Source: Flavobacteriales bacterium
GTDB lineage: Bacteria > Bacteroidota > Bacteroidia > DT-38
DNA: 41,464 bases
Direction of reading: 5' to 3'
Assembly (NCBI GenBank): GCA_013214205.1
Contig: JABSPQ010000397.1
Location: 1 to 41,464 of the forward strand
The first letter of the stretch is position 1. Each line of letters starts with the position of its first letter. Positions 11,769-15,206 of the stretch are shown here, piece after piece. The position numbers and the translations under genes are program-made. The notes beneath the pieces are model-generated. The model was not told the DNA's origin, ran no database searches, and saw nothing but the letters and a program-made list of their open reading frames with translations.

Positions 11769-12437
11769 TTGAAAAACCAAGACGCAACAAGGGCTTACTT
11801 AGGCTTCTTTATTTCCTTAATTTTTGTGGCCATAATGTGGTTAGTAAAATATATTGAGGAATCGCAAAATATATCGTTTGTGTCGTATGGAATTCTGCCT
11901 AGAACATTTTCTGGATTGAAAGGAATTTTGACTAGTCCATTTATTCATGGCGATTACGACCATTTGATAAGTAATTCGAGTCCGATGTTGATTTTGGGCA
12001 CTTCTCTGTTTTATTTTTATCGGAAAGTGGCACTTAAAGTGTTTATTCTCTTGTTTTTTGTAACAGGTATATGGGTTTGGGCTGGTTCCCGAATGTCGTT
12101 TCATATTGGTGCGAGTGGGTTAATTTATGCACTTGCTGGATTTTTGTTTATGAGTGGAGTGATTAGAAAAAACATGCAGCTTTTAGCAATATCGCTTATG
12201 GTTGTTTTTCTATATGGTAGCTTGGCTTGGGGAATTTTGCCTTACAAACCTTCAATCTCTTGGGAGTCGCATTTGTTTGGAGGTATAGCAGGGGCAGTCG
12301 TTGCGTTTTTTTACCGAAAAAGAGGGCCAGAAGACGATAAATATGATTGGCAAGATGAGGATGACGACGATGATTTACACAAGGATAATACGTTGCCCAA
12401 TTCTAATATGCGAATTGTATATAGGATGAAGGATTAG
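11769..12437 (+). CDS. Rhomboid family intramembrane serine protease
   Basis: It cuts membrane-spanning substrates inside the lipid bilayer. The 222-residue protein has about six hydrophobic helices between residues 10 and 182. The L3/TM2 motif HGDYDHLISN (His60, His65, Asn69), the catalytic serine in HIGASGLIYA (Ser116) and the catalytic histidine in SWESHLFGG (His168) are all present, so it should be active. The C terminus after residue 184 is a hydrophilic, very acidic tail (EDEDDDDDLHKD). The start is TTG; the first ATG would fall inside helix 1. Its stop touches the stop of the next, convergent gene with no base between. Confidence 0.9.
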   Translation: MKNQDATRAYLGFFISLIFVAIMWLVKYIEESQNISFVSYGILPRTFSGLKGILTSPFIHGDYDHLISNSSPMLILGTSLFYFYRKVALKVFILLFFVTGIWVWAGSRMSFHIGASGLIYALAGFLFMSGVIRKNMQLLAISLMVVFLYGSLAWGILPYKPSISWESHLFGGIAGAVVAFFYRKRGPEDDKYDWQDEDDDDDLHKDNTLPNSNMRIVYRMKD

Positions 12438-13058
12438 TTATTTCGGAATGACTTCGAGTTTGAAATTGTCTAGTAAAAAATCGTTTTTCTCTTTGTTTAA
12501 AACATAAACTTTGAGTTTGTATTTTTTACCTTTTTCAATTTTACCCAGCTTAAACCTAGCGTTGTTTTTTACCCACTCGCCTTTTTTAGTGTTTTGTATT
12601 TGGTATTTGTTCCAGTAAACCGACTTATTATCCTGATCGCTGAGTGACACTACAAATAAAACTTTGTTCATATTGTCGCCAAGTTGCTTAAAGCAAGCAC
12701 CTACTTTAAGGGCTTTTATGTCGTTTAAATCTAATGTTTCGTCGTAGTTAATTATAAACCGTGGACTGTATTTCCATTCCTTATTTAATTTTAAAGATCC
12801 TGGGTCATTGCAGGAATCGTCGTCGAGTTTCCAATTCTTGTTCTTTTTTTTCTTAAACGAAAACTCCGATTTATAGTAAATTGGGCTTTTTGTTAAGTCT
12901 CTTTTATCCTTTTGGGTAGTTTCTTTGGTAGAAGTTTTACTTGCTACTTTCTTTTTATCATTTCCATCGCTGCTTGTTATCTCCATAATTACAATTGCCA
13001 CGATGAACGCTGCGATGAAAAAATAAATTGATTTCTTGTTTTTGTTGCTGTCTTGCAT
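12438..13058 (-). CDS. Unknown membrane-anchored protein, intact copy of a tandem pair
   Basis: I do not recognise the family. The 206-residue protein has one N-terminal membrane segment (about residues 10-27, YFFIAAFIVAIVIME), a Lys/Thr/Ser-rich linker (about 33-75), then a beta-rich C-terminal half with a core LKVGACFKQLGDNMNKVLFVV (about 116-137), YWNKYQI, WVKNNARFKLGKI and FLLDNFKLEV. The spacing of strands suggests a carbohydrate-binding-like or jelly-roll sandwich exposed outside the inner membrane; that is a guess from pattern only. The neighbouring copy at 13134-13754 has exactly the same coding length and shares the core, so the two arose by tandem duplication. Confidence 0.75.
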   Translation of the reverse strand: MQDSNKNKKSIYFFIAAFIVAIVIMEITSSDGNDKKKVASKTSTKETTQKDKRDLTKSPIYYKSEFSFKKKKNKNWKLDDDSCNDPGSLKLNKEWKYSPRFIINYDETLDLNDIKALKVGACFKQLGDNMNKVLFVVSLSDQDNKSVYWNKYQIQNTKKGEWVKNNARFKLGKIEKGKKYKLKVYVLNKEKNDFLLDNFKLEVIPK

Positions 13059-13133
13059 AGTTAGATTGTTAGAAGGGATGAAAATTACTCTATTCCTTTT
13101 GAATTGAATACTTGTTCGGGAATAATACTTTTT

Positions 13134-13754
13134 TTACTCGAAATCTTCGATGTATTTAGATGTTACTTCGATGTTAAAATTATCAACTAAAAAAGTTTCT
13201 TTATCAGGATTCCATATGTAGGCTTTCAAACGATGTTTCTTTCCTGTAGGAATTTTATCTAGCTTAAATCTTGTTTCTTTGTTAATCCATTCGTCCTTTT
13301 CGTATTTTTAAATTGCGTAGTCTTTCCAAAATACCGATTCACCAGCTTCATTGGTAAAGGCAATCACAAAAGAAATTTTATTTAAAGATTCTTTGAGTTG
13401 CTTGAAGCAAGCACCCATGTCAACGAATTTCATTTCGTTTAAATTAACTTCCTCAGCATATTCTAATTGAAAAAATGGGCCAAATACGGTTCTTTTGTCC
13501 ATTGCAACAGATACGGTATCTCTGCAATAACCGCCATCGATGTATTTTTGTTTGCTGTTTTCTTTATGAGTAAAGTTCTGTTCGGCTTTATAAGCAAGTT
13601 TGTGAATTTTATTACCTCCGTTTTGTGAAAATTTAACGTAGCCATCTACAACATTCCAGCATTCTATGCTATAGATTTCTATGTATGAAATGGTAGCACA
13701 AAAGACTAATAAAATGATGTAAAGCAGCTTGTTCCTTTTTTTGATTTCGCTCAT
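13134..13754 (-). pseudogene. Second copy of the tandem pair, broken by an in-frame TAA
   Basis: From ATG at 13754 the frame reads an N-terminal membrane segment (LLYIILLVFCATISYIEIY), then GACFKQLKESLNKISFVIA and SVFWKDYAI, and stops at TAA (13310-13308). The same frame continues past that stop with no shift: KYEKDEWINKETRFKLDKI, then KKHRLKAYIWNPDKETFLVD and NFNIEV, ending at a second TAA (13136-13134). This continuation aligns with the intact copy (GEWVKNNARFKLGKI, FLLDNFKLEV) without gaps. The TAA replaces a glutamine of the intact copy, so one C-to-T change in CAA explains it. Full length is 206 codons, equal to the intact copy. A truncated 148-residue product could still be made, lacking the last strands. 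Confidence 0.85.
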
Positions 13755-13865
13755 TAGTTTAAAAGCTTAAAGGTAATCTTTAAACGATTACTATAATGCT
13801 TGTTAGGTAGGAAAATGATGATGGCAAGGTGATTGGATTTTGTAATCTATCACACGGTTTATTAA

Positions 13866-15206
13866 TTACTCAGTTAACCGAATAATCTTTTTGGCTTCTC
13901 TAATTCCTGTTTTGTAAGCGCCATGCACAGTGCCTCTGTAGTCCCATGAAGTATGTTCGCCAGCAAAAAATAATTTGTCGTTTACTTCTTCCGATAACAA
14001 TTCGAAAACGTTTGTTTTAATGCCTCGGGTTGCATGAGAGTAGGATCCATAATGGTTTTTATCGCTTCCCCAGTTTGTTCTTTTAAATGAAATTGGGGCA
14101 GGAATGTTTTCGCCGTAAATGATTTTAAGGTGATTCATAATTTCCTTGATTATAACGGAATCCGATTTCGATTCTGCTACTTTAGAATAATTTCCGAACG
14201 AAAAAGTCATTAAAGCATTCACATTATTGGTCTTTTTTAAATTGAGGAAAAGATTGAATTTCCCTTTCTCTTCTGGGGTAAAGCCAATGTAATCTAATTC
14301 GATGTTCCAAAATACGGTGTCCCACACCAACACAAATTTATTAACGGTTCCCATATCTAACTTAGCAATGCCTTCCTGTTTTGCGTGCGGCAAAGGCGGT
14401 TTATAGGCAATGTTTTTCTTTTTGAGTACACCAAGCGGAATGGTAACGATAACATACTTGCTTTTGTAAAACATGTTTTGAGATGCTACAATGGTGAAAT
14501 CTCTAGAGTAATCAATTGTATTTACCCGCTGATCTGTTCTGATGTCAATAGAGTCCTTAAGATGATCTATTAGTCGGCTATAGCCATTGGTAATCATCAC
14601 ATCTTTGCCGATGTAATCTTTGTCGTCGTAGAAAAACTTTGAAGAAAGTCGAGAAATGTCGCCACCAGTATCGAATTCCAAATAGGCCGAGAGCATGTAT
14701 TTCCAAAATCGATCTGTTGAATAATCTGCATAATTTGAATTGAAAACAGATTCGAAACTAGAGGTAAACGTCCCCGAACGTTTTATTAATGTAAGCAGTT
14801 GTTCAAATTCTTTTTCGTTTCTGTCCATCAAGGCTTCTTTGTACTTTTTTCCATCAATGTCGTAAACCTCCACATTGTTGTCGTTGGTAATATAAGTTGT
14901 TGCGCCTGCTGCCTCCAAAAGTGGGGTAATGGGATTTCCTTTTGGACCATGAATCCAACTTGCGCCCAAATCAAGTGGAAAACCGAGAGAAGTGTCAGTA
15001 TGAATTCTCCCACCAATACGACCTTGGGCTTCTAAAATGATACAATCGATACCTTTTTCTTTCAAGTAATTAGCAGCCGATAGGCCCGCTATTCCTGCTC
15101 CTACAATAATAACTGTAGCACTGTCAGTGTATTGATCTGCAAGTGGTTGTGCGTAATTTTTGAAAGCGCAAAAGCAGACTATTAATAATGTTAAAATGAT
15201 TTTCAT
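13866..15206 (-). CDS. Exported flavin amine oxidase
   Basis: This FAD-dependent oxidase would oxidise an amine or amino-acid substrate, releasing hydrogen peroxide. The 446-residue protein has a Sec-type signal peptide (about residues 1-19, ending FKNYAQ), then the dinucleotide-binding VIIVGAGIAGLSAANYLKEKG, GRIGGRIHTD and LGASWIHG, and ends with the FAD-contact motif LFFAGEHTSWDYRGTVHGAY. This layout is that of monoamine-oxidase/polyamine-oxidase-like enzymes. The substrate cannot be read from sequence. A signal peptide on an FAD enzyme without a twin-arginine motif implies FAD loading after Sec export. It stands alone on the minus strand, divergent from the kinase-like gene. Confidence 0.87.
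   Translation of the reverse strand: MKIILTLLIVCFCAFKNYAQPLADQYTDSATVIIVGAGIAGLSAANYLKEKGIDCIILEAQGRIGGRIHTDTSLGFPLDLGASWIHGPKGNPITPLLEAAGATTYITNDNNVEVYDIDGKKYKEALMDRNEKEFEQLLTLIKRSGTFTSSFESVFNSNYADYSTDRFWKYMLSAYLEFDTGGDISRLSSKFFYDDKDYIGKDVMITNGYSRLIDHLKDSIDIRTDQRVNTIDYSRDFTIVASQNMFYKSKYVIVTIPLGVLKKKNIAYKPPLPHAKQEGIAKLDMGTVNKFVLVWDTVFWNIELDYIGFTPEEKGKFNLFLNLKKTNNVNALMTFSFGNYSKVAESKSDSVIIKEIMNHLKIIYGENIPAPISFKRTNWGSDKNHYGSYSHATRGIKTNVFELLSEEVNDKLFFAGEHTSWDYRGTVHGAYKTGIREAKKIIRLTE

What the first reader, a model, noticed from the sequence alone, without database searches (positions are those of the whole stretch)
13134..13754. Single-base nonsense mutation in one of two tandem paralogues
Past the TAA at 13310-13308 the same frame continues for 57 codons that align without gaps to the intact copy, and the total length is identical (206 codons). 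The stop stands where the intact copy has glutamine, so CAA to TAA is enough. The decay must be recent because no other lesion is present. It could also be a sequencing error, a population variant or a readthrough site.
Basis: seen in the sequence. Interest (0 to 1): 0.6.

Follow-up and report, generated by a model that had tools for sequence, protein, structure and literature searches.

The report
Freshly broken duplicate of bacterial gene
One of two neighbouring related genes for a membrane-anchored, sugar-binding-type protein carries a single premature stop codon, an ordinary and probably very recent gene loss (or an error or strain variant) with no sign of anything exotic.

Summary
On the minus strand, 13754-13134 is a 206-codon frame with one in-frame TAA at 13310-13308, next to an intact paralogue (13058-12438, 36% identity). 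The 57 codons past the stop are coding by every test: 49% identity to the intact copy, 43% to the only sister-genome copy, and normal codon usage.

Two details are wrong. The equal length is coincidental: a 7-residue linker gap is offset by one residue and a 6-codon tail extension. "No other lesion" overlooks that tail, a loss of the ancestral stop. The ancestral codon is unproven: the aligned residue is Q in the intact copy but I in the sister genome.

The stop copy groups with the sister genome's single copy (93/80) and has the shortest branch. The proteins are one TM helix plus a CBM22-like jelly roll. The stop removes the last three strands and the family's three most conserved residues, all still present behind it. 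All 31 tRNA genes found lack a UUA anticodon, and no relative has a stop there.

Best reading: a recent single-lesion pseudogene or segregating null allele. A base-calling error cannot be excluded without reads. Readthrough and a useful truncated protein are unlikely. Ordinary; low interest.

The parts
13134..13754 (-). Stop-bearing copy: ATG at 13754, frame to TAA at 13134, one internal TAA. Membrane-anchored CBM22-like jelly-roll protein family
13308..13310 (-). Premature TAA, codon 149 of 206
13137..13307 (-). 57 still-coding-like codons behind the stop; hold the family's near-invariant W, N and D
13134..13154 (-). 6-codon C-terminal extension plus terminal TAA, past the point where both the intact copy and the sister-genome copy stop
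12438..13058 (-). Intact paralogue, 206 aa: TM helix (residues 6-32), linker, jelly-roll domain (about 60-206)
11769..12437 (+). Rhomboid-like membrane protein, syntenic flank shared with the sister genome (63% identity)
13866..15206 (-). FAD-dependent amine-oxidase-like protein, upstream neighbour on the same strand; its sister-genome orthologue runs off a contig end

Best explanation
A tandem pair of paralogous genes, each for an N-terminally membrane-anchored protein with a CBM22-like beta jelly-roll domain, has lost one member through a single nonsense mutation. The tandem pair and the stop are shown directly; the loss of the last three beta strands is modelled. That the truncated product does not fold and is degraded is inferred. 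That the event is recent follows from the lack of further stops or frameshifts and from the unaccelerated sequence behind the stop. The intact neighbour may cover the function (inference). The lesion may be fixed or may still be segregating in the population.
For: Single in-frame TAA in an otherwise open 206-codon frame. The sister genome has a full-length single copy with no stop, in the same ParA - metallo-hydrolase - rhomboid context. None of the listed matches among 395 class genomes carries a stop except this one. Downstream codon usage equals upstream: 0.376 v 0.317 bits/codon in frame, negative or near zero in the other five frames. The stop copy has the shortest branch of the three (0.48 v 0.67 and 0.73) and groups with the sister-genome copy, 93/80. 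W162 and D197 (invariant) and N188 (nearly so) of 26 homologues lie behind the stop and are all kept. Neutral simulation: no further stop or frameshift over the whole gene implies under about 0.05 substitutions per site since loss of constraint, assuming indels at 10% of substitutions; under about 0.15 for stops alone. AlphaFold2: the full intact domain is confident (pLDDT 92-97 in the blocks from residue 91 on), the truncated product 57 with no jelly roll. In Salmonella 346 of 378 pseudogenes have only one inactivating mutation, and 131 are premature stops that shorten the frame by over 20% (PMC2916853); here 28% is lost.
Against: No reads and no second strain, so a base-calling or consensus error is not excluded. 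Expression and fold of the truncated protein are untested. The truncated model has no full-length model of the same copy as control. Branch grouping support is moderate.
Confidence: 0.74

Rival explanations
1. Sequencing, assembly or consensus error: the gene is intact in the organism.
For: 464-contig draft with a single differing base; no decay of any kind behind the stop.
Against: No other interrupted gene was seen among the window's 33 main ORFs, so the sequence is not error-rich. Isolated substitution errors are rare at ordinary coverage (own knowledge).
Confidence: 0.13
2. The truncated 148-aa protein is still useful, for instance as a membrane-anchored fragment or partner of the intact copy.
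For: The first 148 codons are open and codon-typical.
Against: Removes three of nine strands and the three most conserved residues of the family; truncated model has mean pLDDT 57 with no jelly roll; the full-length frame retained behind the stop implies full-length selection until recently.
Confidence: 0.08
3. Programmed or suppressor readthrough of TAA gives the full-length protein.
For: Coding-like sequence behind the stop with no other disruption; in-frame stops with constraint on both sides have been reported in bacteria (PMC7918605).
Against: All 31 tRNA genes found have ordinary sense anticodons and none reads UAA. TAA is the commonest normal stop here, 21 of 33 genes. Neither paralogue nor sister copy has a stop at this site. 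PMC7918605 itself judges most such cases short-lived.
Confidence: 0.04

Closest known systems
Young single-lesion bacterial pseudogenes (Salmonella set of Kuo and Ochman 2010, PMC2916853)
   Same: One premature stop removing over 20% of the frame, no further decay, single-copy syntenic relative intact
   Different: No strain panel here, so fixation and age cannot be measured
CBM22 carbohydrate-binding modules (Paenibacillus barcinonensis Xyn10C CBM22-1/-2, PDB 4xup, 4xuo)
   Same: Beta jelly roll over residues 58-206, VIA-align Z 12, rmsd 3.0 over 134-135 residues; the family profile reaches 4xup at E 7e-6
   Different: Only 10-16% identity, no catalytic domain, a TM anchor instead; no Pfam or NCBIfam model reaches its cut-off; ligand binding unknown
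C-terminal domains of about 600-700 aa membrane glycosyltransferase-like proteins in the same class
   Same: Same jelly-roll domain with the W ... Y.WN..K..F..DDF signature
   Different: Here the domain stands alone on one TM helix

Membership tests
Pseudogene by nonsense mutation | In-frame stop that removes a substantial part of a frame intact in relatives | tested here: met
   Codon 149 of 206; sister copy and paralogue full length
Pseudogene by nonsense mutation | Part behind the stop is homologous in the same frame | tested here: met
   Z 18 and 16.5 against shuffles
Pseudogene by nonsense mutation | Lesion real and present in the organism (reads, strains) | not testable with these tools
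   No reads; only one other genome in the genus and family
Pseudogene by nonsense mutation | No functional product made | not testable with these tools
   Needs proteomics or ribosome profiling
Stop-codon readthrough gene | Suppressor tRNA or reassigned codon | tested here: not met
   31 tRNA genes, none reading UAA; TAA ends 21 of 33 window genes
Stop-codon readthrough gene | Stop position conserved among orthologues | tested here: not met
   I in the sister copy, Q in the paralogue
CBM22-like jelly roll (fold only) | Beta jelly-roll fold | tested here: met
   Model with Z 12 to 4xup/4xuo; profile hit to 4xup at E 7.4e-6
CBM22-like jelly roll (fold only) | Polysaccharide binding | not tested
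   Binding-site residues not compared

The most novel reading that the evidence does not exclude
The stop is tolerated because a low level of UAA readthrough still makes enough full-length protein, so this is a leaky, possibly regulated allele and not a dead gene.
Probability: 0.03. Interest if true: 0.4.

Novelty: new member of a known kind. Interest (0 to 1): 0.08.

Why it matters
Little beyond annotation: it is a clean example of a tandem paralogue lost by one stop, in which the lost copy is probably the orthologue of the one that the sister species keeps. The uncatalogued single-TM jelly-roll family, which no Pfam or NCBIfam model covers, is of slight interest for annotating this class.

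Tried and rejected
Suppressor tRNA or codon reassignment: rejected on the tRNA survey and normal TAA usage. Second, intact allele elsewhere in the assembly: none found. Two scans of genome contigs found no further relatives. Pfam on the single proteins and on 26 homologues gave nothing above cut-off, and NCBIfam none above cut-off for the family. Promoter and terminator scans of 12400-13900 gave chance numbers. dN/dS was not attempted, since copies at 35-42% protein identity are saturated at synonymous sites (own judgement). Several toxin binding domains appear in the fold search; they share only the common jelly roll at about 10-16% identity and say nothing about function here.

Full report
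OBSERVATION. The minus-strand frame 13754-13134 begins with ATG and holds one internal TAA at 13310-13308, codon 149 of 206. It then continues open for 57 codons to a TAA at 13136-13134. The neighbouring frame 13058-12438 on the same strand is intact with 206 codons. The two are paralogues: a protein search of the own genome with the intact copy finds the stop copy at E 6e-34, flagged with one TAA, and no other close copy. The remaining hits are weak, one of them the C-terminal end of a 685-aa frame on contig C52.

WHAT LIES BEHIND THE STOP. The 57 residues match the intact copy with local score 141, against a shuffled mean of 33 (Z 18), and the sister-genome copy with Z 16.5. Their in-frame codon usage is 0.376 bits per codon, like the 0.317 before the stop, while the other five frames are negative or near zero. 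Shuffled DNA of this stretch stays open in 0.5% of trials. The stretch is therefore coding-like, not chance.

The equal length of 206 is a coincidence. In the alignment the stop copy lacks 7 linker residues, has 1 extra, and runs 6 codons past the end of the others. At that end both the intact copy and the sister copy have K-TAA while the stop copy has K-TAC. So there is a second change of a stop codon, probably harmless. At the premature stop the intact copy has Q and the sister copy I, so the former codon is not known.

RELATIVES. Only one other genome exists in the genus and family here (G001). It has one full-length copy with no stop, in the order ParA - metallo-hydrolase (79% identity) - rhomboid (63%) - copy - glycosyltransferase. 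In a tree of 26 homologues the three copies form one clade (99/97). Within it the stop copy joins the sister copy (93/80) and has the shortest end branch: 0.48, against 0.67 for the intact copy and 0.73 for the sister copy. The copy that broke is thus probably the orthologue of the one kept by the sister, and the surviving intact copy is the diverged paralogue. That implies duplication before the split, with loss or non-assembly of the other copy in G001. The G001 orthologue of the upstream amine-oxidase gene ends at a contig end (G001:C85), so a second copy there cannot be excluded. G001 keeps a glycosyltransferase beside its copy, of which G000 has no close relative.

PROTEIN. No Pfam or NCBIfam model reaches its cut-off. 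A wide class search finds the domain in 108 of 395 genomes, alone in about 200-aa proteins or within about 600-800-aa proteins, many of them membrane proteins with the domain at the C-terminus. None of the listed matches has a stop except this one. The model of the intact copy (mean pLDDT 83.6; 92-97 from residue 91 on) has one TM helix at residues 6-32 and a beta jelly roll. Its best solved matches are CBM22 modules, Z 12, rmsd 3.0 over 134-135 residues, and the family profile reaches 4xup at E 7.4e-6. A shared fold does not show sugar binding.

EFFECT OF THE STOP. It removes strands 162-169, 180-188 and 194-205 (intact numbering) and with them the invariant W162 and D197 and the nearly invariant N188; all three are still present behind the stop. 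The truncated 148-aa product is modelled at mean pLDDT 57 without a jelly roll. Caveat: no full-length model of the stop copy was made as control. Loss of a functional product is therefore likely but inferred.

AGE. In a neutral simulation the whole gene would have a further stop or frameshift with over 95% probability at about 0.05 substitutions per site, assuming indels at 10% of substitutions. For stops alone the bound is about 0.15. The sequence behind the stop is nearer to the sister copy (43%) than the intact paralogue's is (35%). Both point to a recent event, or to no event at all (an error).

READTHROUGH. Of 31 tRNA genes found in the 97%-complete assembly none reads UAA, TAA is the commonest stop in the window (21 of 33), and the stop is not shared by any relative. 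Published analysis finds in-frame stops with some constraint to be widespread in bacteria but mostly short-lived (PMC7918605).

CONTEXT. In Salmonella 346 of 378 pseudogenes carry a single inactivating mutation, and 131 of these are premature stops that shorten the frame by more than 20% (PMC2916853). The case here (28% lost, one lesion) is typical. The verdict is ordinary: a recent single-stop pseudogene or segregating allele, with an error as the main rival.

Noticed in passing
13134-13154 (-): Stop-loss: the stop copy reads TAC where both other copies have their stop codon, giving a 6-codon tail.
   Followed up: yes
L003 (G000:C52) and L026 (G001:C349): The same jelly-roll domain sits at the C-terminus of 676-685-aa multi-TM frames; the G000 one matches a putative glycosyltransferase family (NF047440) below its cut-off.
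   Followed up: partly
12438-15206 (-): Amine-oxidase-like gene, stop copy and intact copy lie on one strand with 111- and 75-bp gaps; if co-transcribed, the stop could reduce expression of the intact copy by polarity.
   Followed up: no
G000 against G001: Two genomes of one genus, both about 97% complete, are 5.1 and 2.8 Mb; large gene-content difference or mixed bins.
   Followed up: no
class-wide search: Uncatalogued single-TM or lipoprotein-like jelly-roll family, signature W...Y.WN..K..F..DDF, in about a quarter of sampled class genomes.
   Followed up: partly
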